Positions 4,941-62,400 of a stretch of DNA of 64,000 nucleotides are shown here, piece after piece; position 1 is the stretch's first letter; each line of letters starts with the position of its first letter. The notes under the pieces are model-generated. The model ran no database searches. It was not told the DNA's origin and worked only from the letters and a program-made list of their open reading frames with translations. The stretch lies in contig JANBVO010000016.1 of the NCBI GenBank assembly GCA_030052745.1, positions 372,001-436,000 of the forward strand, given 5' to 3'. The DNA is from Pleurostoma richardsiae. Taxonomy: Eukaryota > Ascomycota > Sordariomycetes > Calosphaeriales > Pleurostomataceae. A program made the translations under genes and the position numbers.

Positions 4941-5498
4941 ATGGAAATACGTCGTGACAAACCGTCACGCAGTTATGATGTAACAGGTATATAACGCACA
5001 TAGGGCACCTCTTTCTCCGAAGAAATTTGTACAATCAGAGTGACGAAGGATCGTGATTAGAACGAGTTAAGGACTATGATGACGGCAACCCATGAGCAAT
5101 TATGGTACATGCCACGAGTGGAATGCATGTAGTGATGTTTTAGCCTCCGGACTTTTGTGTTCTGCTCTTGACATTGTCCTGCTATTTCAATATAAGTGAC
5201 GTGTCATGCGACTCATGCCAGCAGTCGCAAAGAAACAAGTATGTTACGCAGCATCCAGAGATCACGACGCTTATTTCGAGGATTCTCAGTTACGAGGATC
5301 CTGAGAGACGGAAGATGCGAAAATCATCGAATTTGTACCATTCTGCCAATACCACTGAATGAATGTCTGTACAACATGTTTAAAAAAAGCCAAAGGAAGG
5401 ACACAAGAGACACATAACGCTCATGCCGAAGCTGACCGGTCCTAGGGGTCTTGACGGAGGCTGACGCTGATCACCACTTCATAGCACCCGAAACGACC
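4941..5498. other. intergenic between convergent genes
   Basis: This 3' to 3' spacer lies between the Zn2Cys6 factor and the first MFS gene. I find no coding frame with family resemblance. It should hold both polyadenylation regions, but no single signal stands out. Confidence 0.55.
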
Positions 5499-9414: not shown

Positions 9415-10133
9415 GTTGTTCCGAAGATTGGCTTTGGGGTGTGGGGTGTGAATTCTGGAGGAATTGCCGTCGTCAACTGCCGCGTATATCGGTATGATTT
9501 AGCTAGGCGCTTTTAGAGTAGAGGAAGTCTGTTTGCTAGTTGGTGGCTGAACTGTTACATACTGCCTATCACCGGCAAGTCAAGATCAGTATCCGGGCTT
9601 ATTATAGAGCAGTCTTGCTCCGGCAATCTCCTTCAGTTCTAATCGTGCCGGAGTGCGCCGATTGGCAAACGTTCGTCGGCTCAGATCCGGGGCAAATCCG
9701 CGGGGGCGGGGCGATGAGAGATGCGGTTCGGACCCGAGGTTCGGTTCCGCCGTACTGATCTGCAATTGCGTTCCCCCCCCCCCCCCCTCCTCGGCTTTCA
9801 CCTTCCCTTGTCCCCTTTTGCTGGGCTCTGAGTCTATGGCTTTTACGGGGCACGGAGCACACGAAGTCTACTTCGAGTTCCTCTCGGTCCAAGGCACAGC
9901 GATCACCCGAGTCGAATCAGGGAAGATTGAGTGGAATGCCGGAGATCTGGGTGTGTCGTCTGAGCCCATGTGGAGCCGAACCCCGAGCCAAGTACCGAGC
10001 TTCTCTTATCACCTTTGCAAACCCATCCTGTCTGACTCTTTGACATGAACAAGCTCGAAACATTCGATTTATCCCCGTCACTGAAGCGGCATCGTCTGAT
10101 TCTATCAAATTACTCATTGGAAACTGGTTCATC
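9415..10133. promoter_or_regulatory. divergent promoter region between PhyH and second MFS gene
   Basis: About 720 bp separates the two start codons, so this is a shared 5' region. It contains a homopolymer C run (9773-9787). Frames predicted on both strands look like by-products of GC-rich sequence and resemble nothing. No specific operator can be named. Confidence 0.5.
9773..9787. repeat. poly-C homopolymer, 15 bases
   Basis: An uninterrupted run of 15 C's lies in the PhyH/MFS divergent promoter. Its length is both prone to sequencing error and a candidate for length polymorphism. Confidence 0.9.
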
Positions 10134-11932
10134 ATGACTGATGGGCATAAGTGCCGCGCCTCACGCGCAGAGGATGTAGAGGATGCCAAGTCCGCGTCTA
10201 ACGAGCCCTCAGAGTTCATGGAGGTCGCGAAGCCTGCCCATGAGCACATTGAGGGAGACGCGCTCTTGGTTGACAGAAGAGGTCACATCCGCCGATTGCC
10301 AGTTCCATCACAGAATCCCAACGACCCACTGAACTTTAAGATATGGGAGAAGACGGCTATCATCATCTGTTGCTGTTGGTTCTGTAAGTCGTCGCGGTTC
10401 TTCGCCTCATCCGCATCTTGAATCTAGGCTAAACAGATTTGTCTCTCGCAAGCGCTTCTGAGCCTTGCCCTTGCCGCTGGCCTGGGTCCTTTCCTGAGTG
10501 TCTTTGTTGAGATGTACACCCCTCATGGATACGACTCGAATCACATCGCCTTTCTGCTCACCATACCAAATCTGGCTATTGGACTTGGTAAGTTGTATGG
10601 GATACAAGCGACAGGAGTATAACTGACAAACGACCAGGTAACTACATTATTCTACCAGTGTCCCTTGCGATCGGACGCCGGCCTGTGTTCCTTGTCTCAA
10701 CCGTCATCCTGTTGGTAGCCACCATCGGCTCTGCCGTACAGAATGACTACAAGAGCCACTTGGCTACTCGCACCATCCAAGGCCTGGCTACAGGCGCATC
10801 AGAGTCGTTACTCCCTTTGATGCTGACCGAAGTCACGTTCCTGCATCAACGTGGGCAAGTCTTCGGCCTGTACTGGATGGTCCAAAGCGTTTTCAGCGGT
10901 CTCCTCAACCTGTCGAGCAGCTACATCAACTCCTCCTTGGGATGGCGTTGGTACTACTGGATATTCTCCATCGCTATTGGCGTCGGTCTCGTTCTTGCCG
11001 TCTTCTGCGCTTTCGAGACCCGCTTCAGTCGGCCTGCGACGAGTATCGACGGAACCGTGATCATCACCGACGAGTTCGGAGTGACCCACGTCCTTCCAGA
11101 TGATGAAGCTCAGGAGTATCTCGAGCAGATTGGTACCCAAGCACAGAGCGACACAGCAGATGTAGACACAGCACGGACTACATATCTCCAGAAAATCAAG
11201 CCGTGGTCCAAGCCGCATGCTAAACCTCTGCGCATGATAGCGCTTTCCTGGGCTCGCATGGCGCAGTGCCTAACCTCGCCGGCCATTCTATACGTCGTGT
11301 TGATCAGCTCCATCACGCTTGGTTGTGTAGTGGACATGTCTCTGACGTACGATGTGGTGCTCCAGGGAAAAGGTTGGGCGCCGAAGGATATCGGTCTGAT
11401 CAACCTCGGTGCTGTGATAGGTGCGATCATCGGCTCCATCTATTCTACTCTTCTCGGAGAACGCTTTATGGTTTTCATGGCACGGCGGAACCAAGGCGTT
11501 CACAAGCCCGAGCATCGTCTCATTGTCTTGGTTGTGCCCGCCCTGCTGGCCGTCGCCATGCTGCTCACCTACGGCTTTGCCGCTAGCGGGGACGCGTCGT
11601 GGTGGGGACCGGTGCTCGCTTACACGTTCTACAACGCGGCGTGGGTTACCGTTCTTATTGTTTCAACGACGTTTGCATCTGAGGCCACCCCAAAGCATCC
11701 GGGTCCGGCGCTGGTGATGGTTGTGGGAACCAAAAACATTGTCTCATTCGGGTTCACATACGGTCTAAATCCTCTGGTGGCGAAGGGGGGTTACTCCTAC
11801 GCGTTTGGGGTCTTAGCTGGTGTTCTCGGAGCTTGCTTCATTCTGGGCGTGCCTGTCTATTTGCTCAATCCGAAGTGGCGGTCATACACAGGGCGCATGG
11901 AAAAGCGTCGTGGCGTTGTATCAACTGACTAA
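10134..11932 (+). CDS. MFS transporter (paralogue of the 5.5-7.5 kb gene)
   Basis: Exons 10134-10383, 10453-10587 and 10638-11932 join in frame to give 559 residues. A hydrophilic N-terminus of about 70 residues is followed by NPNDPLNFKIWEKTAI at the first helix, the layout also seen in the gene at 5.5-7.5 kb. The loop 2-3 motif is SLAIGRRPVFLVSTV. A long polar loop (about residues 275-360, containing DDEAQEYLEQIG) separates the two six-helix halves. The second intron acceptor was chosen so that LLSLALAAGLGPFLSVF continues helix 1 in register with the paralogue. It has three exons against six in the paralogue, so the duplication is not recent or one copy has lost introns. It is a membrane carrier of unknown substrate, likely co-expressed with the divergent PhyH gene. 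Confidence 0.9.
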
Positions 11933-12198
11933 GGATAATGTATCGCGCTCAAGGAGTTTCTCAGCAGAGTGCTCCATATCTCTGTCATTGTCGTGGGTGG
12001 TAGGAGAGCAACAAGAATGTCGATACCATCCACACCTGTAGCGAACAACGCGGTAGTTTCACCCATACCAATGCGGTTGATATCAATCATTTGTATTCAG
12101 TATCACGTAGAAGGGAAGGATGTAGTGCTGAGACAGACTACGACGTTATCGGGACGCCCTGCTGTTCAGCCTGTAGGCTGGTTCGAAGTTATCAGAGC

Positions 12199-14760
12199 TT
12201 ATAGGGGCCAGAGCTCGACTGAAAAGGAATACTTCTTAGCTCCAGTCAGAACTTTCTTAGTCCGACCCAGTTCAAACACACCTGATGATGTTACGGGTGC
12301 TCTCACCGTCACCTGTAGGCTTTTGACGTTTTCGTCGACTTCCCAGTGGACCTCCAGATTGCCACCAAGAGCTGTCACCACCCTTGCAGATACGTGCTTC
12401 AACCCGAACGTCACGCCGACGTACGGATTCACGACCCAGTTCGCATATCCAAATCCTTGTACTCTTTCAGCTCCTTGGATGCCGGCTACCCAATCTGTAA
12501 GAAGATACGTAGGTGCTCCTCCCCATGGATGTGAAAGGCTGGTGAAGAGCCCCAGGCCGGGGGTACCATCTTGACTCACGTACTCCCAGCTTGCTCCTGT
12601 ATCCGTGCTCCTGTTATTGATCATTGGAGTCCACAATGTCTTGATAAGGTCGACTGCAGTAGTGACAGCACTAGGGGAATTGTGGGACATGATCCCCTCG
12701 AGTAGGAAGCCGTTTGTATTGGGGGAAATGTTGATTGTCGGGTCGGAGGAGTTGTCTTGCGTAGAGTCCTTGTAACCGGGACCGAGCCGGAGCGACGGAA
12801 GGGCAGACAGCAGACGTGCCGCCCTCGTTGCGTTCGCGGTACCAGAGGAGATGCAGAATCCAATACTGTTGACGGAGAAGTCGTTGGGATATTCCGGAGA
12901 GAGTGAGTAGACTCCCAATTCCTCATTCCAGAGCTTGGAATTAATGGCATCCATCAACTGTGCCGCGGTAGCCAAGTACTTAGTAGCCGCAGACCCGTCG
13001 CTGACGGCCGTCGCAACATCAACCAGCTTCTTTAATGCTTCGACAAAGGCGCAGTTGATTGCAGAGCCGCCATTTGAGGGACCCAGGAAAGCCTGGAATA
13101 CGGAGAGTAGGCCGGTTGTCGAGTTTATATTACTGACGAGCCACTCCACCGGACGCTGCCACTGTGACCAGGTCTCGTCTACAAATTCCAGGTCGTTGCT
13201 TCTACGCACGTAGTGTGCAAATGCTTGCAAGCCCAAGATCTGATAGTCGACAAGACCACCGGCGTAACCATCCTGACCTCTTGACGACCCCCCGTCGCCA
13301 AGAGAAAATACGTCTGAAGCCAAAGTGGGATCGTAGCCCATAGCGTACTCATAGGGCAGAAGTCCGAGCTCTGATTGCCACAACAGAATGGACTTGAGCG
13401 TGCTTCTGGCAAGGTCGAACCTCGACGTGCTCGTGGCGATAATGCGGGCAGTGTGCATAAAGTCGCCTAGCCATACCAGCCGGTCGAGGTTCGGACCGTC
13501 CAAGCACACGGCCCCGTAGTTAGCGTGCACTCCATATTCCCGAATTACTCCAGCATCAGAGGAATCCGTCATAGGATTCGTGTATAGTTGCGTTCCATTC
13601 GCCGTGTCGTAGGCGACGACGTTCTTGATGTAGCCCGCTTGGTCTTGCCAGCCGCCGAAACCAAACGAGCCTCCGGTCGGGATCGAACTGCCGCCCATGT
13701 AATAATCGCCTAATGAGACGTTGAATACCTGGATATTCCCAATCTAGACCCTAAGATTCGTGCCATCAAGGACAGTCTTCACCCTGTACTAGGTGCTTTC
13801 TTTGACGGTGAACGGTACGTCGAACGTACCCAGATTGTAGGAGGGGAGTGTGGTTTGGTTGACAAAGGAGTAGCCGTAGGCCAGGAGAATCGAGTTCCGT
13901 TGCATCAACGACGTGTTGGTGTTCATGTAGTGTTGCTCACCGGCAACGAGATCAAGCTGTATTCCTTCACTGGGATATCCAAGTGGAAATGCCTGATCGG
14001 AATGTAAGTGGCCTGTTTACCGATGAAATAAGGGCTAATACGTGCCACCGTCCAACCAATGCCACCTATTTCTATTTTGCTGTCAAATTCCAGGGTATAA
14101 TTGTCAAAGAAGGTTCCCGAAGAACTGACACCTGGCCTCATGCCTCTAACAAGAGCGCCATCCTCTACGTCTACTTCCCAAATCGCGCGCTGGCTTCCAG
14201 CTTCGAAGCACGCCACGCTCGCCGCTCTGGCCCCAAGCTGTCTGACGTTAATGAAAGAGCTGTCAGTGCGGAGAAATAAAGAAAAGAAAAAAAAAACGTC
14301 AACTCGCCTTCCAGATCCTATTCAGGACATCGTCGTTGGATTGGAAGCTACCTGGGAGGTTGTCTATATCGATCACGGGAACAGACGCAATAAATCCCAG
14401 CGAGGTGAAGGTAACACTGCCATTGGTGAGCAGGCGGATGGACTGCCACCTCTGGCCTCCCTGAAGTAGAAAAGGTTCGATACGCCCAGGCCCGGTAACT
14501 TCGGGCGTCTCGACACGGTAGGTGTTAGAGAGGCCAATAGTGAAGGGGTAAGGGCCGTCGGAAAAGGGGTGGTAGAGGGCTGAAAATTCTTCTGCATACT
14601 TGACCTCAATCTGAACCGGCGTAGTCACGATTCGACCTCAAAGAACGGGTAACCAGCAACCTCATGCCCGTAGTCCAAGGTCGCGTACGGAGTGGACTGG
14701 TTTAGATGAAACTTGCGAAATTGTCGCCCACACCGTGAAGGCTGAGATCCCAACGCAAGC
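12199..14760 (-). pseudogene. broken GH78 alpha-L-rhamnosidase-like gene
   Basis: A long frame at 13698-12199 gives the six-hairpin catalytic part: EYGVHANYGAVCLDGPNLDR, VWLGDFMHTARI, DGYAGGLVDYQILGLQ, GASWEYVSQDGTPGLGLFTS and the C-terminal beta domain. Upstream exons 14628-14308 and 14237-about 13960 carry the N-terminal part and join over an intron with a GC donor (GCGAGT). The reading is not continuous. The frame changes near 13960 and again near 14633, and two in-frame TAG codons lie at 13791-13789 and 13746-13744, inside sequence that still matches the family (NLGTFDVPFTV, then GNIQVFNVSLGDYY). The 5' end before 14760 is unclear and I see no signal peptide. Family members release rhamnose from plant glycosides such as flavonoid rutinosides. 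It is probably non-functional; base-calling errors are the alternative. Confidence 0.8.
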
Positions 14761-16795
14761 CCTGTAGGATAGAATACCGGGTCACTTCCCAGAGAGTTAG
14801 CCACGGCACTTTTGGCGGAATATAACAGTTAGAGACGGGAATACGTAACATACACCGGCGTCAAGCTCCGACTACCACTGTGGCCCCAGGGCCACATAGA
14901 GCCGCCGCTGGCATGAATGAGAAGCGGGAGCACCTGGACGGACGGAATGATGATTGATGACAAGTACATAATCAATACTCCTCGTGTTTATGCTCTATTC
15001 TGATAGCTTTATCGTAGCTGAGACCCAGTAGCCGGGAGCTGGATCGTTGGGTGCATCCTATATCTTGTCTCCGGTGGCTCACAGGAGCACTCGATTCTTT
15101 CTCTGTGACATGCCGAAGGCCGCGTTATCTTATTTTGCACCCCGCAGAGCACTACCTGCCCCTTTTGTACCAATCTCGGGTCAATTGGGCGCGCAACAAA
15201 CGCGGGGGTTGGACCGCAGTGGTGCCCAGGGATGCCCGGGTGTGGATTTAAGGCCACCCTCCGTGAGTACCGTGAGCATCACCCCGTGCTCAGCAACAGG
15301 GAGGATGACGCCTTGGCAGGCTGGCCCCGAATTTGCCTCTTTTGGAAGTTTCACCTTTGCCAGTTCTCACGCTGCTTGGTTGCACCGCCGTAGCGTTGTA
15401 ATCCGGGCCGATAGGGTTTCCTCGCATTCGCCCGCTTGGTTGTTCTCACGAACGCCCTGAGCATCGAGCCGGATGACACATCCTCGGTCCGGATAACCCT
15501 TCCTCGGCTCAAGTACCCCCACCAGCGAGCGATAATGTGGCAAATGCAGACGTAGTACGAGTGGTCGATGCCGTCGCCCGGGTCGTTGTGGCTAATAGTA
15601 ACTTGAATTCTAATTGACGAGGCACAATTTCGAGGGGTACTAAGGATTTCTAGGGCATGGATTATAATAATGAAAGGAAGGCAAGAGCTATCTACCCGTA
15701 ACATCCATGTTCATCGTCCGTCGTACGTTAAGACTGACCATGTCTCCCACGTACACCATAACAGCACACCTTTGCAAACAACTTTCCAGCTCCTGGAGAG
15801 AGACACGACAAGCGCGTCCCCCAGTGGACCAGCCGCTGCCCGTTCCCCCCTTCTTCCGGCGCAGCCACCCACTGGAGACGTACTCTGCACAGAGCGACAC
15901 TACCAGGCGCGTTCCCAGCGTTATGAGTGGACCGAGTCACTCATCGTCTAGTTCGAGCGGAAGCCTAGGGCAGTGATGAACAACAAGTGATAAGGACCAG
16001 GAGACTCCACTGTTGAAAGCAACACATAGGCCAGAAGTCAGAGGGGGGGACCTGGACGATAATGACAAAGACGATTTCAAAGGCGGAAAAGAGTCATCTA
16101 TCGGGCAGCAGGGAGAGCCAGATCTTTTCTTCTCGACTCGCTGAGAACATGGACCGACTTGACCTGTGTTTTCGCACCTTGGCCTGAACCATACTCTGCC
16201 CTGGCGACGCACATGACGAGAGTTTCTTCAGGTCATCTTTCGTATCTGAAGAAAGCCCGTGGTTCTCATGGCGAACTGGTTGATGTTATGAGATCAGTCG
16301 CAGTTAAAGGGCATGGGCTAAATGATAGGAACGTATCGACCACAGTTCGGCGAATGCGGTTGCGGAACGAGGCGGCTGTGATCATTCTATGCTTAGCGTA
16401 GTTTCATTACTGTCTTAGCTAGCTGGATTAGTGACGATAATCGTGTTGAGGTAGTCTAGGTTGTAGAGCCACTGAGGCGCAAGTGGTCATCGATTAATGA
16501 ATCGCCGGCGATGATGTTAGACTGGTGTAGAGGAAGAAAACACATCTGTCTTTACGTGCATCTCCCATAAGACCTGGAAATGTGTTGGCTTGAAAGATAA
16601 TCTCTTCTATCCAAACGCCTCCGAGGACTGAGCCCTGGGTCATTGTACTTTGGCATCGACTCAGTATTCCTCCACCTCACTGAATGTCTTATACGGGCGT
16701 GGCAGCGGGACGTCCAGCTTTCGACTGCGGTTCGGTCCGTAGATGTCGGCTTTCTAATTCGTATGCAGTCAACGGACTGTCAAAGTCAAATTTCC
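14761..16795. other. 2-kb gene-poor region
   Basis: I see no frame with recognisable family features on either strand. The lost 5' end of the GH78 gene may reach into the first few hundred bases, but nothing can be aligned by eye. The open frames around 15.0-15.5 and 15.7-16.2 kb overlap on opposite strands and lack coding character. Confidence 0.5.
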
Positions 16796-49367: not shown

Positions 49368-51067
49368 CTATGCGTGCCATCGTGCCCGAGCGTAGTAGAC
49401 AAGCAAGCTAGCACAGGTCACCACGGTTGAGATGACAAGAATTCCACCCGTTATGACTCCCTGGTCAAAGAAACCAATGTCTCTTCCATTCTTGAGGCGC
49501 TTCACCTCGGGCAATCTCGCTCTCACTTCATCGTCAAGTTGCGCCAGCAGCAATGGCGTCGGCTCTAGAAGAATGCCGTCCAGGAGCTGAGACTGTCTTG
49601 GCGGCAACACGTACTGTGGTTTTGGCAAGGTGAAAAAGCTCAGGTCGTATGGAGTAGAGGAGCCTATATCGAGGGGTTTCTCTGCCGGCGCGACCGGGCT
49701 AACTGTAAGCTTCTGTTAGCGAGAAGGCGCTTAGAGTCGAAGACAGGATTAGAAATATGTCTTGCACGCACAGAGGAGAGCTATTGGCAGCTGATTTACA
49801 AAGCTGACGTCTGAGTCGAGGAACTGACACAAGTACTTGGCTGCCCCTAGTGTCCTCGTGAATACAAACGCTGCCGCTAAGCGGCCGAGACTACTCCATG
49901 TTAGTCTTGTGCAGGGGGGAAAGCATATGGGACGCTCGAGATATAGATTACCCGTTGGATAAGTTGATTGCGTCGTCCACGCTTGCCACCGCATGAAGTA
50001 CAAGACATCGTTCTCCTAACTTTGGCTGAGCCATTGCCGAGCTCCTGAGGCACGAAGCTATGTTAGCAAGCGGTTATCAAAGTCTAACGCGACACGGACT
50101 GACCTGTCGAGCAGTTCAACCACCGTTCCGTTGGCCGCCGAGGACACAAGTCTTGCTTGCCCACTGTTAATGGCTTCGTCGGCAAACCCGCCACTCACCT
50201 TCGCTCCGGCAGCCGCCATACGACCATTGGTAGCGAGCCGAATTGAACACTGAACTGCAGCGGCCAAGAAGTCCTTGAACACCCACTCGTTAACGAGGAT
50301 TAGGTCTGGCGCGTACGGCGATTTCCCACGAAGGCCGAACCGCGCTCCGACCAGCGCTTCTGCTGAGACGGTTAGGTCGGCGTCGCGCTCAACGACCGCG
50401 ACCACGCGAGCCTCGATAGGCGAAACGACATGGTTCGTTAGAGGTGGATCGGGAGACCCATTTTGGAGGACACGGACGTGCCGATGGTTAATGTCGGCAT
50501 CCGCGATCGCCTTGGCGGTGGTTGTGCAGATTATATTCTGGTCTAAGGCCTCTTCGACAAGTCCTAAGATGACCAATGGAGCCTTGAGCATAGTCTGCTC
50601 TACCTATATGATAGTTCAATGTAAGTTTTCGTCCAAGTACATACTCATCCCTAGCAGTGATCACTCCTTACCCGGATGATGACGCAGTTGCCCGCGGCGA
50701 TTGCAGGCGCCAGTGCAGAGATGAGTCCGAACAAGAATGCGTGCGTTGCCGGCTCAATAACGACAATGCCGACCGGCTCACAGGCACGCGGTGCATCGTT
50801 TCCATTTGCGATGGCGTATTCGGCGTCGAGATCGCGTTCCGGTTCGATCGAGTTATAGGTATCCGCTAGGCATCGGAGAGCAAGCCAGTATTCCGCTTTT
50901 ATCTCCGCCGGACGGTGCCCTGTATCCTCTCCGAGCACTTTCTGAATCTCCGCGGAATTATCGATCAGTTTATCATGTAGCCTTTTGAGCTGGGTCTTCC
51001 TGAAGAAAGGATTGTGAACTCTTCCGTCAATAGCGGCCGACCTGACTTTGGAAAATGGCTTGGCCAT
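49368..51067 (-). CDS. aldehyde dehydrogenase-like protein lacking the catalytic cysteine, C-terminal membrane anchor
   Basis: Exons 51067-50672, 50597-50104, 50044-49952, 49893-49772 and 49702-49368 join in frame to give 479 residues. ALDH blocks are CEPVGIVVIEPATHAFLFGL, the substrate tunnel region ALAPAIAAGNCVIIR, and C-terminal ASVDDAINLSNGSLGRLAA. At the active-site loop, where active ALDHs have GQxC, it reads GKSPYAPDLILVNEW, with no cysteine. This is the pattern of fungal MSC7-like ALDH homologues. The C-terminus has a hydrophobic segment (GGILVISTVVTCASLLVYYA, about 450-470) followed by RARWHA, which fits a tail anchor. Dehydrogenase activity is therefore doubtful; a binding, scaffold or altered role is possible. 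An earlier in-frame ATG at 51079 would add four residues. Confidence 0.85.
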
Positions 51068-51493: not shown

Positions 51494-51796
51494 ATGTCTT
51501 CTACCGCCACGACGACTCGGCCCTCGACAGGACTTACTCTACAGGCTGTCCTCGCCGACTATGACTTACATCACTCCAGCGGCCCGGCTACGTCAACAGC
51601 CAGCAACGAGTCTGCAAGCCAGACGCGGAATCCTCCAGCAGGCTGGGACGACACACACCGTCGCGTCCCCGCTCACCGACCGACTAACAGGCAAAGAGAC
51701 CCGCTGGAGACACGCGTGTACACGAGCACAGCGGAGCAGATATTCATCTCCGTCATGTTCACGGGGGTCTTCATCAACTCGGTAAGTGTGCCCTAG
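51494..51796 (+). CDS. small hypothetical protein
   Basis: A 100-residue frame, Ser/Thr-rich at first (MSSTATTTRPSTGLTLQAVL), then polar, then a hydrophobic stretch EQIFISVMFTGVFINS followed by a GTAAGT-type donor. It may be the first exon of a longer gene whose remaining exons I cannot find, or a remnant. It matches no family I recognise. It starts about 430 bp upstream of, and divergent from, the ALDH-like gene. Confidence 0.35.
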   Translation: MSSTATTTRPSTGLTLQAVLADYDLHHSSGPATSTASNESASQTRNPPAGWDDTHRRVPAHRPTNRQRDPLETRVYTSTAEQIFISVMFTGVFINSVSVP

Positions 51797-52077
51797 CGTT
51801 TCCCAGTGATCAGCGACTGCGAGAAAGCTGGAGTGGGAAAGACTTTTTAGAGGTATTCGTACTAATCGATTCTACTCGCTAGACTGCCGCGAAGACATGG
51901 CACCGAACATTTGGGAGACTTAACGATAACATCTTTCGATATCGTATCGGAGGAGAGATGTGAGGTCGGGGTCCGTTGGTCTACTATGTATCTGGAAATA
52001 CCGATAGAACAACAGCTACTTCATTGAGCCTCCATGATTTGGAGATATCTAAGTGCCTGAACTGTGTCCTGCAAGTA

Positions 52078-52629
52078 TCAGGATGACTCTTTGACCCCTG
52101 CCATGTGGCCCAAGTCTTCCCTGATCTCCGCGCGGCCAATCGTGAGCGGTTGGACCGGCTGCAGGATATACAGCATTCTCGCCCACTCTGTCTGGCTGAT
52201 GTTCCTCCAGGCGTGCATAGTGGCACGCTGGATGCAGACGTCTCCACGCTTCAGCACCCTTGTCTCCCCAGAATCCAGGACTAGCTCGACCTCGCCCTCT
52301 AACACGACACCGTAGTCCAGGCTGACGGTGCGGTGCATCGGGGAGAGCTGGCCGGGCGGCATATCGACGTAGCGTAGCACCGTGCCGTCCGAGACGGTGA
52401 GACCGGGGGAGTCGCGCAGATACTTCTGGTAGACCTCTATGTCGGCGCCGTGCGAAATCTGGGTAGGGAACCCTCTTGTCACGTAGCACTGGGCGAAAGC
52501 GGCCACTTTGTCTGGTAGTTCGTAGAATGGCGCCTCGGCAGGGATTGAACTGTCCACTATGGCTCGACCCTGGTCATCGTGGGTGGTGATGAACCTTTTC
52601 GGGTGACTGAGCTTGCCCTGGAGAGCCAT
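52078..52629 (-). CDS. small single-domain cupin
   Basis: One exon of 183 residues. The cupin core is GTVLRYVDMPPGQLSPMHRT (about 93-112) and DYGVVLEGEVELVLDSG, then GDVCIQRATMHAWRN. The metal-binding histidines and glutamate of cupin motif 1 (G-x5-H-x-H) are only partly present: MHRT keeps one His. The second motif, RGDVCIQRATMHAW, keeps the His. So it may bind metal weakly or act as a binding protein, isomerase or decarboxylase-like helper. This form is common next to fungal aromatic and secondary-metabolite genes. It lies between the ALDH-like gene and the fumarylacetoacetase, and is divergent from the latter. Confidence 0.85.
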   Translation of the reverse strand: MALQGKLSHPKRFITTHDDQGRAIVDSSIPAEAPFYELPDKVAAFAQCYVTRGFPTQISHGADIEVYQKYLRDSPGLTVSDGTVLRYVDMPPGQLSPMHRTVSLDYGVVLEGEVELVLDSGETRVLKRGDVCIQRATMHAWRNISQTEWARMLYILQPVQPLTIGRAEIREDLGHMAGVKESS

Positions 52630-53075
52630 TGCTTTAGAAAATTCCTGTCAGCGAAACGAGAGGAACCAATAAGGACTTGACATCGACGTCTATCACGGAT
52701 AACTACCTAGGTTTGAAAACATGCTGGAAAGACGATATATTACGATTCAAGAGACCTGGTGAGGTCTCGTCTCCCCCGAGCAAGTTTCGTCGCACATCCG
52801 ACTCGACCGGGCCGGGATGTGGACAGGCCGCAGTGCTCCAGCCTTCGGAGCACACCCGGCTTAGCACTTCCACTAGAGCCGAGAGCTCTTGAGACTTTGT
52901 CGAAGGAGACTTGATACCGAGAATCTACGCCGGACTTTTTCTCGAGTAATGAAAAGGCTGTCCATCCATTCGGACGGACCGGTTATGGGTGTATGCTCGA
53001 GTGCTTCTCAGCACTGTCAGCGTGATCTCCGCCCTCAATCCTCCAAATCACCAAGTCCAGCCCGATCAAGTCCAA
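52630..53075. promoter_or_regulatory. divergent promoter of cupin and fumarylacetoacetase
   Basis: 446 bp lies between the two start codons. CGGACCG occurs at 52975-52981, about 95 bp before the hydrolase start, the same heptamer as in the regulator promoter at 48.6 kb. This supports, but does not prove, a shared regulator. Confidence 0.45.
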
Positions 53076-54472
53076 ATGGCGTCTTTAGCATGTGAAGGCC
53101 ACTTTTCGGATCGCAATATACCATTCGGAATTGCATGCTCAAAAACGCATCCAGAACGACAGGCCGTCACTCGCCTAGGGGATTCAGTCTTGTTCCTGAG
53201 CGACCTCGCCGCCCATGGTCTCTTCTCGAAGATAAAGGGTCTCCCAGACGGGGTGTTCTCCCACGACTTCCTGAACGCCTTTGCGGCTCTCGGCAGGTCT
53301 ATTTCCAGAGCCGTCAGGGAGGTGATCCAGGAGATATTTCGCAATGGCGGCCTTGGAGCGTTCCCGCAGGGCGCCGTTGAGGAACTCGACGCAGTGACTA
53401 TGCATCTTCCGGTCTACATAAGCGACTTCACAGGTAACGAAGCGACTCGTTGACACTCCAACTTCTGCGTACCCGAAGAAGGGAGTTGCCCTAATTAGAT
53501 ATAAGACTTCTCATGTAGCGTCGAGCACGTCAAAAACGCCGGTCGCATTATCATTGACGACGAACGGCCTCCCCCTGCATTCTTCAACTTTCCGATCGCG
53601 TACCAAGGGCGGGCTAGCTCCGTGGTCGTGTCGGGGACCCCAATCCAACGCCCAATGGGACAGTATCGAGATAAGACAACTTCGGGCGCACCAGTCGTGT
53701 TCGGACAGTCGAGGGCGGTAGACTACGAGCTTGAGTTTGCAGCTGTGGTTGGAAAACCTCTCGCCATGCGTCAGCGGCTGAAGGCCACCGAGGCCGACGA
53801 TCACATCTTTGGGTTCGTTGTGCTCAACGACTGGAGCGGTCAGTTGTCCCCACAACGTTTATTGCGATCTATCAGCCGCGGAGGAACAAAGAGTATAATC
53901 TAACGATGTACTGTCACTCAGCGCGAGATATTCAAGCCTTCGAGATGACGCCTCTTGGTCCCGCAAACGGCAAGAACCTAGGCACGACTATCTCGCCGTG
54001 GATCGTGACCCTCGACGCCCTAGAGCCATTCAGGCTCCCGAGTCCACCGCGCACCCTATCCGTACCTCCGCACCTTGACGACGGTGGAAACGGCGCCTAC
54101 GCCGTTCGCATGCAAGCCGAGGTTGTAGTGGGACACAACGCGACTGTCACGGGTGTCTCCCAAGTGCAGTGGCTCTACTGGACGATACGACAGATGGCAG
54201 CACACATTGCGAGTGCCGGTGCTTCGCTGCGGACCGGCGACCTCTTGGCGACCGGTACCGTCAGCGGTCCAGGAAAAGGGACGCATGGTTGCTTGCTCGA
54301 AGCTACCGAGGGCGGTACGTCGCCGGTCCGACTTGAGAACGGGAGTACGAGGGGTTATCTCGAGGACGGAGACGCCGTGAGAATGACAGCTGTTGCCGGC
54401 GATGGAAAGTCGAGTGTTGGCTGGGGCGAATGTGTCGGGCAGTTGCTTCCGGCCCAGCCATTCAACCAGTGA
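53076..54472 (+). CDS. fumarylacetoacetase (FAH family)
   Basis: Exons 53076-53433, 53506-53838 and 53922-54472 join in frame to give 413 residues, the usual FAH length. The acceptor at 53505 (ATAAG) is chosen because it gives ISDFT then DFSCSVEHVKNAG, the DYTDF-x-H metal and catalytic-His region. RASSVVVSGTPI, the YELE metal pair (AVDYELEFAAVVG) and NDWSARDIQ are all intact. Members cleave a carbon-carbon bond in fumarylacetoacetate or related acylpyruvates, the last step of homogentisate breakdown. Being separate from any homogentisate dioxygenase here, it may act on a different ring-cleavage product. It is divergent from the cupin gene. Confidence 0.93.
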
Positions 54473-54587
54473 TACCCGATTGTATATACACACACAGGAT
54501 AGACAGTACTGAATCCTCAGCTAACCGCAAACTTCTCCTAGTCTCTGCCACTAGACGCGGAACGCTGAACATTCCACGTGCCTGATG

Positions 54588-57525
54588 TTAGGCAAGCATT
54601 CCCGGGACAGACACACCGTTTTCAGACGCCTTCTGAAGCCCTCCTATAAGGTGGATAAGGTTATCGACGAGATGAGGACGGAAAGACTCTTCGTGGTTTC
54701 GACGCAGGATGTCCACTACAGTCGCCATCATCCTGTCTGGCTGGGAAAGATGGACATCTATGGACTGGTTGTCAAGCCCCGGCAGGCCGCGAATGCAAGG
54801 AGATCCGCCTCCAAACCGGATGAACCTCTGCACAGCAGTGTCATCAGGACCGTCCAAGCGAACCACCTGGGACTGTTCCGCAATTGCCGTAGCAGGACTA
54901 TGGAACGAAGCAGCCCGGTGCGTCGAGGGAGCAGCCAAGTCTGGTCCTTCCGCCAGCATGCCATACACCCACACCGCCAGGCTGGCGTGATACACAGTGA
55001 TTGCGTAAACTCCCCAGATTGACCCCTTCTGGAGGTGTTTTGCTGCGCGGAGAACCTGACCCCCGTGCCAGACGGCTCTCCTGGCCGACTCACCCTTCAC
55101 CCACTCGTTGATGGTCGGATAGACAAGGCGCGCCTGCTCGAGCCCGTCCATGCCGGCGAAGAGTTGGACCTCTTCGAAGGGCATGTGGAGGTGCATGTAG
55201 ATAAGCTCCAACCGCATAGTAATCTCATCGGCATAGGCACCATCCAAGTCGGCACTGATGCGGAAGTTGGCGAGGAGTCTCATGATCTCCTCGTGCCGGG
55301 ACCCCATGAGCAGCGCATTCCATCGCCGCGGTCCTGAACCGGCTCTCTGGAGCGATTCAAGCTGGATGTACTCCCATGAGAGCCGCCAGGCGCAGGACAA
55401 CAATGCAGAGCTTGAAATGCTGGTGTCGACGGTACTATTGTGGGCGAGGGAGCCTTCGGGGTCGTCGACGTAGTCGGCTAACGTGAGCGGTCGAGCCGAG
55501 GAAGAGTTCGCCCCGGTTAGGAAAGATGCTTTCCACTGGGTGGCGCTGACCGCGGACCACATCTCAGCCGAGTCAGGGATGGGAAGCTGGATCTCGGCAT
55601 ACGATATCAAAGGGTTGACAAGAAGAGCGATCGAAGAGTTGGTGTCGTGCTCGAGCACCCTGAAGGTGAGTCGCTTAAGGGACTCCTGGTCCACCCACCT
55701 CGTCCATGCACGCTGGAGTGATTCCTCGTCGTCATCATCGCTGGGCATGGCGACCTTCGAGTATCCTGATCGTTTCAGCCTCCCATCTCGTCTCATCATT
55801 GTCACTAGAGGCTGAAGGAAGCTCTCTGCAATCTCGACCTTTCTGTTATGACCGCTCCAAAGGCCGATCTCAAGGGTTATGAGGTAGGCTTGCCAGAGTT
55901 CTATGTCTCTGGTAAGAGAGTTATTCCGTTCCCACTGCGTGACACGTCAGTATATCCCGTTATTTAATCTGTGCGGAACTTGAGCTGCGGCATCATGAAC
56001 TCTTACGTGTTTAGGTATTGCAACTCGAAGGCACTCCTGAATGGCCAGGCCGAGTTTGGACAAGGCAGGGTCCGCTGTCAGAACCGCTCCGCCGGCGACC
56101 ATGGCAGCAAGAAGTTCTGGTCGCTTCCCATTGGGAGCAAAAGTCGCTGCGTGCAGGAAGCGGTCTGACCCCGCAAAAGGCGACGTCAAGAAGTACTGGA
56201 GCAGCGTGTCGAGCAACTCGGCTGTCGGGAATAATTCAACAGCCCTGGAGAGATCCTGTGAGTGGAGGCTTTGGATGACGGTGGTAAGGATCTTGTCACG
56301 GGCCGACAGGCTTAATCTCGCGCAGGTCACGCGCCTCCCGAGGGATATTCGAGACTCGGGAGACTCATGATCGCGAGACGTCGATGGCAAAGAGAGATTG
56401 TGCTCCTCGGCGGCGGCGTGATCTTGAACTCTGGGCCGGAACTTCCAGTAGTTCCCGAATACCTCCGTGCATATGGCCGCTGGCCTGCACGGATCCGGGG
56501 AATGGTCCTGCGGCACGTGGAACCCGGGATCTTGATGGGCTCTGCTGTCGAGTTCAAAAGGCAAGTTCGTGTTGTATGCCTCTAAGAAGCGTAGATCAAC
56601 ATCGTTTAACTCGAAACTCATACCCGCGTCAAAGTCGAGAGCTCCCATTGGTGTCCACTGTCCTTGCAGTGCTCCCAGATCTGGGAATTCTGTACCAGAA
56701 AAACTAGTTAGCTAGGTATTCTTCTGGGAAGCGACATAAAGCTGACGCATTTAGAATCATGTTAATAGATTCGAGAAACGTACCTAAGAATGGCTGGGTC
56801 TGTGGGAGAAGAGGTGTGAGCATGTTCGGAACCCTGCAGCTGTCTGACGGATCGCCATGGAACTCGTCTCCGTATGCGTCTTCAGGGAGCCTGGGCGGCG
56901 AGCCGCCGACCTCTTCCACCATCTCCGTATCAATGGTCGCAGGTGGTGTGATTGCCAGCTGTGCCGAACGATCCCAGAGGCAGTCAATGTCCTTTTCGGT
57001 GCAGCGCTGGCACGGTTTCTCTTCAGTGCAGCGCAAGTGATTTGAGGCGCATGCCTGACATGCCTGTGTCACTCGTCCAATGATAGACCCATCACGGAGG
57101 GATGGCGCGCGCCTAGTCTTTCCCACGTTCGGAGAATCGTGCGCCATTACATGTCTCTTCAAGAGGTCCCTGATCCATGCAGAAATAGCGCTTAGTTGTC
57201 ACATTCAACATAAGGTTGAGAGGGTACTTGACTCACGCTCTCCCGAATGCCTTGGGACATACATGACACTGGTATGTCTTCGTCCGGGTGTCTATTCAGT
57301 GCTGCTTTTCAATATTCTTCTCCCTGAGAAGGAATGGAAATGAAAGAAGGGAGCAGTGAGAAGGGTAGAGAAGAGAAATGGGAGGAGCTTACGCGATCGT
57401 ACATGGCGCGTGAGATGGTCGACCCTCTTGTATCGGCGTTTACAGGTGCCGCACTGGAAGAGTCCCGGCATCTCGTCTTGCGCGGGACTGGTAGCCGCAG
57501 GTGCGACATCACTTATCGACTCCAT
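54588..57525 (-). CDS. C2H2 + Zn2Cys6 hybrid transcription factor
   Basis: Exons 57525-57393, 57291-57237, 57169-56784, 56689-56007 and 55934-54588 join in frame to give 867 residues. Two C2H2 fingers are assembled across the first introns: FQCGTCKRRYKRVDHLTRH, linker, YQCHVCPKAFGRADLLKRH. A Zn2Cys6 cluster follows at once: QACQACASNHLRC, then PCQRC and DCLW. The C-terminal half has the fungal_trans region, with MRLELIYMHLHMPFEEVQLF near its end. The combination of fingers plus cluster in one protein is known in fungi but uncommon. It acts in the nucleus. It is tail to tail with the fumarylacetoacetase (115 bp) and divergent from the LigB gene, both plausible targets. Confidence 0.92.
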
Positions 57526-58326
57526 TCTGTGCGTAGGCTCTCATGTGCAAAGACAAGTCCTTGAGACTCAGGTTAGGTAGGATGAGACCGATCCACAAGG
57601 TTCCTCCCATGTGTTGTGTAGCGTTGAGAAGATGAGAACTAGGACGGCGCAGGATGGCTGTGGGGAAGGCGGGTGGGTGAGTGCGGGGCCCCGGAAATCC
57701 CACCCCATTCTGGGCTGACTATTCTCCGTAAAGAACGGGCACGCAGTGATAGGAAGAACCGCCTCTCACAGTGCTAAGGCGTGGCGTAGGCTAATTCCAA
57801 AGAGGGATGGCCGCCGTGCGGCCGTCTGGATATCCAAGCTCTATCTACGAGACAGCCATCTTACTAGTGCTATCACATCGCCATAGCTCCCCTCATAAGA
57901 AATCCCCCACTGCCTATTAGGACTCGAAGGCCTCGAGAGATCAGCAGTAAGGTGTCACCCATGACCTTTGACCCATTCGTTTCACTTACGTGCCTCTGTA
58001 ACACAAGTGAAGAGCGGAGCGCAGATGATCGACCGTGGTTTGACTGCCTTGAGCCGGCATTGGCCTGTGCTCTTCGGGTCCCTCCTCCACATCCCGAGTC
58101 TAAGTGGATGCGAGACAAAGATGATTAGCCGGCAAATCGATAGACAACGCGACAAAAGAAGGCTATAATCGGCATCTTCAGCTCACTGGGTCCTATTATT
58201 ACATGCAGCAATCGAACACTGAGATAAACCGTTGGACTATTGCGCAATGAGTATGTGTCACGCCGATGGTTCCCTCCAATCTTCCCAGCTAGGTCGCTCT
58301 GTTAACCCAAGGCTCTGAGCTGACAC
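57526..58326. promoter_or_regulatory. divergent promoter of hybrid regulator and LigB dioxygenase
   Basis: About 800 bp separates the two divergent start codons. I find no coding frame, repeat or clear operator. It is a reasonable place to look for sites of the adjacent regulator. Confidence 0.45.
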
Positions 58327-59297
58327 ATGTGCAAACCAGCGCCGTTGACGCCAGTCCACTTCTTTTCGCATGGCTCAACCATGATGCTGGGCGAGCCCTC
58401 GGAGTCTGCCGACTACTGGAAGAAGGCAGGCGAGGAGGCGTTAGCACATAAAATCAAAGGCGTGATTATGATGGTAATGAGCCAGTCCTAGGATCGCAAG
58501 AGCAGTAGTGGAAAGAGAGCAGTGGATAGGACCGTCTTGAGTCAGAGCTGACCATCTTATCAAAGGGTGCGCACTGGGATGCACTGGGTGACAGGATCGA
58601 AGTTGCCACAAACCCAAACCCCGGAAAGTCCCCTGTCGCCTACGTCCACCCATCGAAATATGTCGACTACAAGCTCAACCCAGACCTCAAGACCGCCGAC
58701 CGTTGCATCTCCATGCTCTCCAATGCCGGCTTCGACGTCACGGCAAATCCGACATTCGATTGGATACACGACACGTACCTGATACTGATCCGCATGTTCC
58801 CTAACGGCTGTCCGCCCACCGTGCTCATCTCGATGAACGCCCGGTTCGATCCTCACTACCACGTCAAGGTTGGAGCTACGCTACGGCCACTGAGAAAGGA
58901 CGGCTATTTGTTGATTGGCTCCGGAGGCGCCGTGCACAACCTGTACCGAAACGTCTGGACGCCTATGCTGCGGTACAGTGATAACTTTGCCCAAGAGAAG
59001 TCACCCGAGCCCTGGGCACTCGAGTTCCGCCAGGCCGTTGAGGATGCATTTGTTCATAATAGCGGTCCTAAGCTCCGGAGGGCTGTTACGCGACTTATGA
59101 AGCATCCGCTGTATCGGGAGGCACACGCTACCGACGATCATTTTATGGCGGCCATGTTTGTCGCTGGTGCCGCAGGGGATGAAGAGGATGAAGGGGTATC
59201 TGCCGAACTAAAGGCTGAGACGTGGGAATTGACCAATATGTGCAACAGCCAATTCACAATTGGCAACTGGCCGAGGACGTTGGCAACGGTGGCGTAA
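58327..59297 (+). CDS. LigB-type extradiol aromatic ring-opening dioxygenase
   Basis: Exons 58327-58473 and 58566-59297 join in phase 0 to give 292 residues. The start was found by reading back from the intron: MCKPAPLTPVHFFSHGST carries the two N-terminal iron-ligand histidines (HFFSH). GAHWDAL at the start of exon 2 carries a third, and NARFDPHYHVKVGATL with GSGGAVHNL gives the rest of the LigB/DODA (PF02900) active site. Members open a catechol or DOPA ring next to the diol with O2 and Fe(II). Fungal members are few-copy and include DOPA dioxygenase-like enzymes. It is divergent from the hybrid regulator and one gene away from the fumarylacetoacetase. Confidence 0.92.
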
Positions 59298-59476: not shown

Positions 59477-62400
59477 CTAGTATAGAGACAGTCGCTCTAA
59501 GGGTCCTATGATGCTTCGTAATTCCTCCCTCCTCCCCTCCTCAACCATGCGTTGCATACCCTCTAGCCACGCTTCGGCTGAACCCTCACCTCCGCGTGCC
59601 TTGTCTCTATCCTGTTCTACTCTCTTCGTCCAAAAGTCGACCAACCTGCCGAATTTATCATATGGTAACTGTTCACTGAACATCGCCCAACTGTCCACCA
59701 CCCTCCTTGCCTCCACCTCGTTGATCTCAAACCATTCATCATGCTTCCCACCCTTTCCACCGTTCCTCGTCCGACACCTTCCGCACGGGGGGTGGGCCTC
59801 AACGTGTCGTACAGGTTGCAGCGTCGTGTGTACGAGCCTTTCAAGCCGCTCGGCCGCGCAGGGGACGCGTACGCGGAAGACCTCTGTGACAGGATGGCCG
59901 CAATCGGTTGCCCAGCGCGCGAGGCGGCGGTCGACGGGGTCAGGATGTAGCCAGGGCCGGGGCTTGACGACATCGTCTGTGTAGCCGATCTTGAGGAACC
60001 CGGGCGCGGAGGCGCGGGAGTAGGCATAGATGTAGCCGGGACGGCGATGTCTAGGTGAGACAGTCTGGGTGAGCAGGTTGAGGAGCCTTTTGAATCGTGG
60101 AAGGGGGTCGATCTGCGCATATGGGATAAAGGGATAGATTGGTCGAACGACCGGTATGGGAGACGGGCATGCAACGCTGTGATTCTGAATCTGAGACTCG
60201 TCCGCGTCGTCACTGATGTCGAGGAGGCTTAGCAGCTCCGTCGGAAATTCGTCCTGCTCTCCTTCCGTGCTCTCGGATGGAACGTCTGGCTGCTGCAAGT
60301 CCTGATGTTGAATTTGCACAGCCTCTTCATCCAAGCCATCTGTATCCCTCTGGCTACCTTCAACGCCATCTTCGTTGGCGCTGTGGTCCTCGTTGTCACC
60401 ACCCCGCTCGCTGCCCTCGTTGTCACCCCGTGTAACTCTTTCGCTTTCATCTTCACCGCCATCTGGGGAGGATTGAACGAGTACCGCCGGATCTCCTTCG
60501 TCATCATTATTGCTTACCGGGTCAATCACCACGAAAGAATCATGTCCAGGACTGTTATGTGAGGTGGGGGCTTCTAATTCCGGGCCGGGCTCTCGTGTCG
60601 ATACCGACCGCACCTCCGCATTGAGTGCTGAATTGGGTACAGGTTGTGCATGTTGTACAGCTTGTACATGTTGTACGGCTTGCTCGGGTTGCACGGGTTG
60701 TATAGGCGGCACGGGTGGTACAGGCAGTACAGGTTGTACAGGCAGTACAGATNNNNNNNNNNNNNNNNNNNNNNNNNNNNNNNNNNNNNNNNNNNNNNNN
60801 NNNNNNNNNNNNNNNNNNNNNNNNNNNNNNNNNNNNNNNNNNNNNNNNNNGTTGTACTGGTTGTACTGGTTGTACTGGTTGTACTGGTTGTACTGGTTGT
60901 ACTGGTTGTACTGGTTGTACTGGTTGTACTGGTTGTACCGGTTGTACTGGTTGTACTGGTTGTACGGGCTGTACGGGCTGTACGGGCTGTACAGGTTGTT
61001 GCACAGCTTGCACCGGTTGTACTTCTGGACAGTCTCCCGTCCCAGATTGACTCCTTCCCAGTAGCTCACCTCTAACATTGACAGGCCCCGGGGCAGTGTT
61101 CTCGGCGGAAGACTCGGCCGCGAGACCATGTGCGGTACTACGGGGTCGCGATAGAGGTATGTTCCTGTCGAGTGTTTGTAGCGCAACGCGATTAGTTGCC
61201 GAAGAGGTTTCCGGCTGAGCTAAGACATGTTGTTGGGCCAAGGCCGTTGTTGTGGTATTGGGGGTTGTGGAGGGGCCGACCGCCCCAGGATTGTGAGTCC
61301 CTTGTGGCACCGGACGGTGCTGGGTGGCGGTTGTCGATATATAGGATGGACCCGTGATATTCCCAGGAGGCGGACCCGGTAGATGATGCGCCGAGTTGAC
61401 AGCTGTTTGAGATGTGTGTGCTATGTTGCTACTGGACGCTCCCGGCTGCGTCACTTGATCGCGGTATACTGCGAACGTAGCCCTAGATGGCTGCGGCTGC
61501 TGATAGCTTGAGGATGGCAGTGGTTGTTGGTATTGTGACGCGGGCTGTGCTTGCTGATATTGCAGTACTGGCTGCGGTTGCTGATAATTTGAGACTGGCT
61601 GTTGTTGTTGGTATTGTGGCGTGGGTTGTGGTTGCTGATACTGTGGTACTGACTGTGGTTGTTGATGATTCGAGGTCGGCTGTGGTTGTTGGTATTGTGG
61701 TACTGCCTGCGGTTGCTGATAGTTTGGGGTGGCCTGTGGTTGGCTCTGTGGTGCTGGTTGCTGTTGTTGATAACTCGAAACTGGCAGCGGTTGTTGGTAT
61801 AGTGCTGATGGCTGCGGTGGCTGATAATTCGAAGTTGCTTGTGATTGGTATTGCGGTGCTGCCTGTGGCCGCTGGTAGTTTGAGACTGATTGTGGTTGTT
61901 GGTATTGTGCCGATGGCTGTGGTTGATGGTACTGCGGCGTGGGTTGTGCTTGCTGATATGGTGCCGCTGCCGGTGGTCGCTGGTACTGTGGTGTGGGCTG
62001 TGGCTGTTGATATTGTGATGCTGCCGGCACTTGCTGATCGTTCGAGACTGGTTGTGGTTGTTGGTATTGTGGCGCTGCCTGTGGTTGCTGGTAATTCGAG
62101 GTCGGTTGCGAATAGCTTTGTGACGATGGTTGTGGTTGCTGGTAATTCGGCGTTGGCTGTAGTTGTTGGTATTGTGACGATGGCTGTGGTTGTTGATACT
62201 GTAGCGCTGGCTGCGTATGCTGCTGAGCCCCTACACCAGAAGCGGAACCGGAAAGAGAGGACGAGTCGTAAACGAAGTCAGAAAGTGTCGAGTCCGGTGT
62301 GGCATGGTCACCATTATCATCATAACCTTCTCGGTCAGAGCCATCACTATCCGAATTGTCCCCCACATGCAGCTGCTGCTCAGCACGTACCTGCTGGAGG

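What the first reader, a model, noticed from the sequence alone, without database searches (positions are those of the whole stretch)
52078..59297. Candidate ring-cleavage set: LigB dioxygenase, fumarylacetoacetase, cupin and a hybrid regulator side by side
Within 7 kb lie an intact LigB extradiol dioxygenase, an intact fumarylacetoacetase, a cupin and a C2H2-Zn2Cys6 regulator, next to an ALDH-like protein. With the FAD phenol hydroxylase at 0.7-2.1 kb this gives hydroxylation, ring opening and C-C hydrolysis. Fungi mostly use intradiol or homogentisate routes, so an extradiol enzyme paired with FAH would be unusual. Gene identities are seen; the pathway is inference. I found no homogentisate dioxygenase or maleylacetoacetate isomerase in the window.
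Basis: partly seen in the sequence, partly recalled or inferred. Interest (0 to 1): 0.75.

Follow-up and report, generated by a model that had tools for sequence, protein, structure and literature searches.

The report
Fungal extradiol ring-cleavage gene cluster
A fungus carries three related copies of a gene set that probably breaks open aromatic rings by a route (extradiol cleavage) described as unresolved in fungi, and one copy has recruited an altered version of a tyrosine-breakdown enzyme.

Summary
The genes are real and open. LigB (292 aa), a fumarylacetoacetase-like hydrolase (413 aa), a 183-aa cupin and an 867-aa C2H2-Zn2Cys6 regulator lie at 52.0-59.3 kb of a Pleurostoma richardsiae contig. 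They belong to a true cluster: FAH-cupin, LigB-cupin and, less often, FAH-LigB linkage recurs in other fungi, and the same genome holds two more paralogous clusters (C116, C49) with LigB, cupin, regulator, ALDH-like protein, small orphan protein, S15/CocE hydrolase and FAD hydroxylase, but no FAH. The window's cluster runs past the window end, where relatives of the S15 hydrolase, FAD hydroxylase and ADC-like genes lie; the phenol hydroxylase at 0.8-2.1 kb is probably not its partner. The FAH branch keeps the metal and catalytic residues of fumarylacetoacetase but has replaced three substrate positions (Y128S, R142 lost, Y244M), so it probably hydrolyses a different dicarbonyl. The ALDH-like protein has Pro at the catalytic Cys position. 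Best reading: a regulated catabolic set of hydroxylation, extradiol opening and hydrolytic C-C cleavage; substrate unknown. Degradative clusters built on an aromatic ring-opening dioxygenase are a known kind in fungi; the meta-cleavage route is described in print as uncharacterised there. New variant of a known kind.

The parts
49749..51067 (-). ALDH-like protein (probable pseudoenzyme; Pro at the catalytic Cys position); C-terminal exon structure not resolved
   Evidence: PF00171 24.3 bits on the first exon (cut-off 23), 15.7 on the second; homologous to C116 and C49 copies, 35-40%; alignment of the C49 copy to solved ALDHs
51494..51962 (+). small orphan gene, 122 aa, exons 51494-51781 and 51883-51962, head-to-head with the ALDH-like gene
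   Evidence: three loci in the whole genome at E <= 0.001, one per cluster; no Pfam match in the A, B or C copy
52078..52629 (-). single-domain cupin, 183 aa
   Evidence: PF07883 36.5 bits; nearest solved chains 8x0u, 3es1; P0241 100%
53076..54472 (+). fumarylacetoacetase-like hydrolase, 413 aa, exons 53076-53433, 53506-53838, 53922-54472
   Evidence: PF01557; TIGR01266 371.5 bits against cut-off 375.3; pocket residues; AF2 model pLDDT 92.7, best match mouse FAH 1qco
54588..57525 (-). hybrid regulator, 867 aa: two C2H2 fingers, Zn2Cys6, Fungal_trans; exons 57525-57393, 57291-57237, 57169-56784, 56689-56007, 55934-54588
   Evidence: paralogs in clusters B and C
58327..59297 (+). LigB/DODA-type extradiol dioxygenase, 292 aa, exons 58327-58473 and 58566-59297
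   Evidence: PF02900 30.9 bits on the second exon; NF007914 80.9 bits; conserved His; fold of a close homolog
59477..61219 (-). unrelated T5orf172/MUG113-domain open frame with Q/P-rich repeats and a run of N, lying between LigB and the rest of cluster A

Best explanation
This is the left two thirds of a regulated gene cluster for opening and dismantling a hydroxylated aromatic ring. Shown: the genes, their open frames, their conserved grouping, the conserved LigB histidines, the kept catalytic and changed substrate residues of the FAH. Inferred: (1) the FAD hydroxylase just outside the window adds a hydroxyl to a phenolic acid or phenol; (2) LigB cleaves the resulting catechol or trihydroxybenzene beside a hydroxyl (extradiol); (3) the FAH-like enzyme, metal-dependent, hydrolyses a C-C bond of the resulting 1,3-dicarbonyl, one lacking the group that Arg142/Tyr128/Tyr244 hold in fumarylacetoacetase; (4) the ADC-like and S15/CocE proteins do a decarboxylation and an ester or C-C hydrolysis; (5) the cupin is an accessory enzyme such as an isomerase; (6) the C2H2-Zn2Cys6 protein switches the set on with its substrate. 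The ALDH-like and orphan proteins are conserved but cannot be assigned; a classical dehydrogenase step is unlikely.
For: Cluster A continues past the window end with an S15 hydrolase (69.5% to B's), FAD hydroxylase pieces (48-57% to B's) and an ADC-like gene (46%) (Pfam over the cut-off for S15 and ADC). Clusters B (C116) and C (C49) repeat LigB 69/68%, cupin 60/31%, regulator, ALDH-like, orphan, S15, FAD hydroxylase. The genome has PF06314 at 2 loci (A, B) and the orphan at 3 (A, B, C). Other fungi: FAH-cupin adjacent by locus tag in 6 of 6 sequentially tagged pairs, LigB-cupin 2-4 apart in 3 of 3, FAH-LigB 2-4 apart in 2 of 6. A Verticillium longisporum gene model fuses FAH (59%) and S15 (84%) sequence, so the two genes are adjacent there. 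LigB: H52, H117, H173, H241 in 121 of 121 (window plus 120 hits), H15 in 103 of 103 with a letter. FAH, 117 hits: metal and catalytic residues kept wherever a letter is present; Ser at 128 in 107 of 112 with a letter, no Arg at 142 in 117 of 117 (Leu, Val or Ile in 104), Met at 244 in 116 of 116 with a letter.
Against: No expression, substrate or enzyme data. Clusters B and C have no FAH-family match at all, so FAH is not essential to the core. FAH and LigB were on one contig in only 10 of 24 shared species names, and 166 to 16,033 tags apart in 4 of 6 tag-comparable pairs (one of these on a 2,352-base contig). The cluster A hydroxylase rests on homology: of five pieces scanned, four gave no FAD family and one gave PF01494 below the cut-off (14.2 against 22). 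With one C49 hydroxylase piece as query, the window's 0.8-2.1 kb hydroxylase scored best by E-value (9.7e-22, 35%) after the query itself, ahead of the intron-split copy beyond the window. LigB is well below the NCBIfam DOPA-dioxygenase cut-off (80.9 against 233), so its substrate is open; in its homolog's model the stretch 168-189, which holds one of the histidines, has pLDDT under 50. Cupin, ADC-like, ALDH-like and orphan proteins have no assigned reaction. A 5 kb stretch with an unrelated frame separates LigB from the S15 hydrolase in cluster A.
Confidence: 0.62

Rival explanations
1. A biosynthetic rather than catabolic cluster: LigB opens a ring to make a pyrone, betalain-like or other pigment or antifungal product, and FAH, ADC-like and cupin tailor it.
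For: LigB enzymes make betalamic acid and pyrone precursors in plants, and an Aspergillus DODA (which that paper places apart from its LigB proteins) gives a yellow product from L-DOPA (PMC12653660, passages). Hybrid regulators and FAD hydroxylases occur in metabolite clusters (general knowledge).
Against: No long synthase-like frame in the 30 kb fetched around cluster B or C (longest frame 597 aa, an S15 hydrolase), though most frames there were not scanned for domains. Several hydrolases and a C-C hydrolase fit breakdown better.
Confidence: 0.17
2. Detoxification only: LigB disarms a plant phenolic (such as a stilbenoid or catechin) and the other genes tidy up the product, without feeding central metabolism.
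For: EpCDO3, a class III extradiol enzyme of a spruce pathogen, has ring-cleaving activity in vitro; both scenarios are left open in PMC8896014 (passages).
Against: Several hydrolases and a decarboxylase-fold protein suggest onward breakdown; not tested.
Confidence: 0.15
3. A second homogentisate/tyrosine or gentisate module (FAH as fumarylacetoacetase or fumarylpyruvase, cupin as ring-cleaving dioxygenase).
For: FAH is close to the equivalog (371.5 against 375.3 bits); the Scedosporium gentisate cluster has a dioxygenase, FAH, monooxygenase and Zn2Cys6 factor (PMC8283699, passages).
Against: No HGD match on C45; HGD+FAH pairs elsewhere. No gentisate-dioxygenase match on C45; the cupin is a 183-aa single domain. 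Three substrate residues changed.
Confidence: 0.04
4. Unrelated neighbours by chance.
For: None found beyond the unrelated frame at 59.5-61.2 kb.
Against: Three clusters in one genome and conserved linkage in other species.
Confidence: 0.02

Closest known systems
ARD (aromatic ring-opening dioxygenase) class of fungal degradative gene clusters (Gluck-Thaler and Slot 2018, not held; seen through passages of PMC10735191)
   Same: A ring-opening dioxygenase clustered with other metabolic genes; said to be enriched in plant-symbiotic fungi and present in only some Trichoderma. That ARD means LigB-type is my reading of the name
   Different: The passages seen name no FAH, cupin, pseudo-ALDH, ADC-like or orphan set and no triplication; I could not read the original tables
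EpCDO3 / CDO3 class III extradiol dioxygenase of Ceratocystidaceae (PMC8896014)
   Same: LigB-domain extradiol enzyme similar to DOPA dioxygenase in ascomycetes
   Different: In the figure legend seen, CDO3 is flanked by genes such as DNA ligase 4 and 40S ribosomal protein S19, not by a catabolic set; no orthology test made here
Bacterial homoprotocatechuate pathway HpaD-HpaE-HpaG (recalled)
   Same: LigB-superfamily extradiol enzyme, ALDH and FAH-fold protein in one pathway
   Different: FAH here is of the long FAH type, HpaG-C 35 bits against 276.4; the ALDH-like protein has no catalytic Cys
2,4-dinitrotoluene/hydroxyquinol-type routes with extradiol enzyme then FAH-fold hydrolase (DntD-DntG; recalled)
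   Same: Logic: extradiol cleavage of a trihydroxybenzene gives a dicarbonyl that an FAH-fold enzyme splits
   Different: No sequence test made
Fumarylacetoacetase (TIGR01266; mouse FAH 1qco)
   Same: Fold, metal ligands, catalytic residues
   Different: Y128S, R142 lost, Y244M; score just under the equivalog cut-off

Membership tests
LigB/DODA-type class III extradiol dioxygenase | PF02900 above the curated cut-off | tested here: met
   30.9 bits against 26.3 on the second-exon frame alone
LigB/DODA-type class III extradiol dioxygenase | Metal-binding and acid-base histidines (roles recalled) | tested here: met
   H52, H117, H173, H241 in 121 of 121; H15 in 103 of 103 with a letter; alignment to YgiD
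LigB/DODA-type class III extradiol dioxygenase | DODA fold | tested here: met
   AF2 model of P0121 (88% identical), pLDDT 81.4 with 168-189 under 50; best PDB match 8in2 beet DODA, TM 0.75/0.81
4,5-DOPA dioxygenase equivalog (NF007914) | Score above cut-off | tested here: not met
   80.9 against 233 bits
Fumarylacetoacetase (TIGR01266) | Score above equivalog cut-off | tested here: not met
   371.5 against 375.3 bits
Fumarylacetoacetase (TIGR01266) | Metal ligands and catalytic residues (roles recalled) | tested here: met
   D126, H133, E199, E201, D233, R237, K253, E364 kept
Fumarylacetoacetase (TIGR01266) | Substrate residues Y128, R142, Q240, Y244, T350 (roles recalled) | tested here: not met
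   Y128S, R142I, Y244M; Q240 and T350 kept; mouse, C62 and C52 keep all five, C126 has F at 128
Homogentisate cluster | Homogentisate 1,2-dioxygenase in the set | tested here: not met
   No HgmA_C match on C45
Gentisate cluster | Gentisate 1,2-dioxygenase in the set | tested here: not met
   No TIGR02272 match on C45
HpaDEFG homoprotocatechuate pathway | Active semialdehyde dehydrogenase | tested here: not met
   Pro at the catalytic Cys position: C by alignment, A and B by the same motif
ARD degradative gene cluster | Ring-opening dioxygenase core gene in a cluster conserved between genomes | tested here: inconclusive
   conserved linkage found; the published pipeline, core sequence and cluster models were not available to run
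Active catabolic pathway | Co-induction by and growth on a substrate | not testable with these tools
   no expression data

The most novel reading that the evidence does not exclude
A complete fungal meta-cleavage pathway, unresolved in print, in which extradiol opening of a hydroxylated aromatic is followed by C-C hydrolysis by a new, substrate-shifted branch of fumarylacetoacetase; it is modular (FAH in one copy, S15 hydrolases in all three here) and has been triplicated in one fungus, with an ALDH-fold pseudoenzyme and a cluster-specific small protein as conserved, unexplained members.
Probability: 0.4. Interest if true: 0.65.

Novelty: new variant of a known kind. Interest (0 to 1): 0.5.

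Why it matters
[quoted passage not shown] In A. niger, deletion of 17 potential ring-cleavage genes, chosen by domains that include PF02900 (LigB), left growth on gallate intact (PMC10512348, passages), so the role of fungal LigB proteins is open. The recurring set named here supplies candidate downstream enzymes and a local regulator, so the question can be put to a test by overexpressing or deleting one gene.

Tried and rejected
Rejected, with some doubt: the 0.8-2.1 kb phenol hydroxylase as partner. It is 50 kb away, and the copy beyond the window end is nearer to the B/C hydroxylases piece by piece (47-57% on most pieces, 35% on one, against 34-47% for the window's). Against this, by E-value with one C49 piece it was the best match in the genome after the query itself. 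Rejected: housekeeping homogentisate role and gentisate role. Not found: a bacterial counterpart. A scan of genome contigs with the LigB alignment gave 7 pattern matches, none a relative; a scan with the cupin alignment gave 25 bacterial loci (some only 3-5 kb), and 0 of 25 held a LigB or FAH match to my profiles at E 0.001. Negative control: the more distant LigB loci C60, C79, C65 (10 kb each) showed no paralog of the cupin, regulator, FAH, ALDH-like or orphan genes at E 1e-5 and 28% identity; the C115 LigB was not examined. Led nowhere: paper searches for the gene combination and for identifiers (two papers already known, and chance hits).

Limits: neighbourhoods in other fungi were read from equal contig lengths and from locus tags, not from DNA. 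Of 120 listed rows each I entered 119 (FAH), 100 (LigB) and 56 (cupin); the rest, nearly all without a species name, were dropped before counting. Of 17 FAH-cupin tag pairs, 11 with non-sequential JGI-style numbers were set aside as uninformative. In one search, 117 of 120 FAH hits passed a length filter. The chance figure used 5 cupin loci; one search shows 6, recomputed.
Full report
Source. The window is C45:372001-436000 of a 39.4 Mb fungal assembly. The spliced FAH of the window is identical to 'Fumarylacetoacetase [Pleurostoma richardsiae]' on a contig of 712,699 bases, the length of C45.

Gene check. I rebuilt the genes by splice sites. LigB: 292 aa, one intron. FAH: 413 aa, three exons. 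Cupin: 183 aa, one exon. Regulator: 867 aa, five exons, with two C2H2 fingers (the first 21.4 bits, under the cut-off of 25.2; the second by eye), a Zn2Cys6 cluster and a Fungal_trans domain. Between the ALDH-like gene and the cupin lies a small gene of 122 aa.

Is it a cluster? Inside the genome: the close LigB paralogs lie on C116 (69%) and C49 (68%); cupin paralogs lie within 7 kb of both. All-against-all comparison of the fetched regions and Pfam show on C116: FAD hydroxylase, ADC-like, cupin, hybrid regulator, S15/PepX_C hydrolase, LigB, ALDH-like, orphan; on C49: S15 hydrolase, orphan, ALDH-like, FAD hydroxylase, LigB, hybrid regulator (Zn2Cys6 over, Fungal_trans under the cut-off), cupin, two more S15 hydrolases. 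ALDH-like and orphan are head-to-head in all three. Searching the genome with a C49 hydroxylase piece listed C45:439568-440007, beyond the window, among 31 matches; the window's own 0.8-2.1 kb hydroxylase ranked above it. Reading on, cluster A continues with an S15 hydrolase at C45:436270-438052 (69.5% to C116's), hydroxylase pieces at 438644-440160 (48-57% to C116's; Pfam itself gives no FAD family over its cut-off for them) and an ADC-like gene at 440091-441056. PF06314 occurs at 2 places in the genome, both in these clusters, and the orphan at 3, one in each. FAH is in cluster A only: no FAA_hydrolase match lies on C116 or C49.

In other fungi: from the listings, FAH and cupin share a contig length in 16 of 21 shared species names (Pleurostoma included), FAH and LigB in 10 of 24, LigB and cupin in 5 of 13 named plus one unnamed 9,643-base contig. 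Where locus tags are sequential, FAH and cupin are direct neighbours in 6 of 6, LigB and cupin 2-4 genes apart in 3 of 3, FAH and LigB 2-4 apart in 2 of 6 (the other four: 166, 4,783, 9,261 and 16,033 tags). A Verticillium longisporum model fuses FAH and S15 hydrolase sequence, so those two are adjacent there. The genera with near tags include Fusarium, Phialemonium, Lomentospora, Thyridium, Thermomyces, Verticillium, Malbranchea and Elasticomyces.

What the enzymes can do. LigB: the nearest solved relatives are plant DOPA dioxygenases and E. coli YgiD; five histidines are kept in the window protein and in all of the 120 listed hits that have a letter there; a model of the 88% homolog P0121 matches beet DODA best, though the stretch with one histidine is of low confidence. 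It should be a competent extradiol enzyme; the substrate is open. FAH: the model (pLDDT 92.7) matches mouse FAH (TM 0.90). In an alignment of 117 hits with mouse FAH and the genome's three paralogs, the metal ligands and catalytic residues are kept, but position 128 is Ser in 107 of 112 with a letter (Cys 4, Pro 1), 142 is never Arg in 117 (Leu 50, Val 32, Ile 22, others 13), and 244 is Met in 116 of 116 with a letter. The paralogs keep Tyr/Phe, Arg and Tyr; two of these lie beside homogentisate dioxygenase genes. That 128, 142 and 244 touch substrate in mouse FAH is recalled, from no call. So the chemistry is probably kept and the substrate changed. ALDH-like: the two aligned solved enzymes shown read GQTS (I take the Ser for a crystallographer's change of the catalytic Cys; recalled) where cluster C reads GRSP; A and B also have Pro in that motif. 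Cupin: nearest solved chains are single-domain cupins without a named reaction; bacterial relatives (25 loci) are not beside LigB or FAH in the DNA held.

Mechanism. Best supported: hydroxylation (FAD enzyme), extradiol opening (LigB), hydrolytic C-C cleavage (FAH-like, metal-dependent), with decarboxylase-fold and S15 hydrolase steps, under a local regulator. Only gene content, conservation and residues are shown; order, substrate and products are inference. A trihydroxybenzene would give a dicarbonyl suited to an FAH-fold enzyme, as in bacterial routes that I recall but did not test.

Against known kinds. Fungal degradative clusters built on an 'aromatic ring-opening dioxygenase' were defined before (passages of PMC10735191; the original paper is not held; that this means LigB-type is my reading). 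[quoted passage not shown] The A. [quoted passage not shown] None of the listings and passages that I looked at described this combination; the library is open-access papers only, and most listed papers were seen as listings alone. Hence a new variant of a known kind, of moderate interest because it makes an open question testable.

Noticed in passing
C116:16174-29192 (L033, L034) and C49:17111-34540 (L036, L037): Two further paralogous LigB clusters in the same genome, one on a 74 kb contig, one 17-35 kb from a contig end.
   Followed up: yes
window 51494-51962: 122-aa orphan gene whose only relatives found in the genome lie in the other two LigB clusters; the copies share a C-terminal Y-x-(I/V)-GGE tail.
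   Followed up: partly
window 59477-61219: T5orf172/MUG113-domain frame with Q/P-rich repeats and an N run, sitting inside cluster A between LigB and the S15 hydrolase; looks like an insertion.
   Followed up: partly
C45:441267-449000 (L049, L050): Beyond the ADC-like gene: a cytosine/uracil/allantoin-type permease, an isochorismatase/amidase stretch and a DAO-Rieske oxidoreductase, perhaps a separate catabolic set.
   Followed up: partly
C62:310.5-313.8 kb and C126:737.8-741.3 kb: Two homogentisate dioxygenase + FAH pairs, and HgmA_C matches at seven other loci: a large family in this fungus.
   Followed up: partly
C126:579.0-582.4 kb and C46:386.3-394.4 kb: Gentisate-dioxygenase-like and FAA_hydrolase matches lie close together: possible gentisate clusters elsewhere in the genome.
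   Followed up: no
window 58327-59297: No identical LigB protein appeared among the best 120 database hits, although the neighbouring FAH did, so the public annotation may have missed or mis-modelled this gene.
   Followed up: no
window 825-4201: FAD hydroxylase followed by a Zn2Cys6/Fungal_trans regulator: possibly its own small phenolic module.
   Followed up: no
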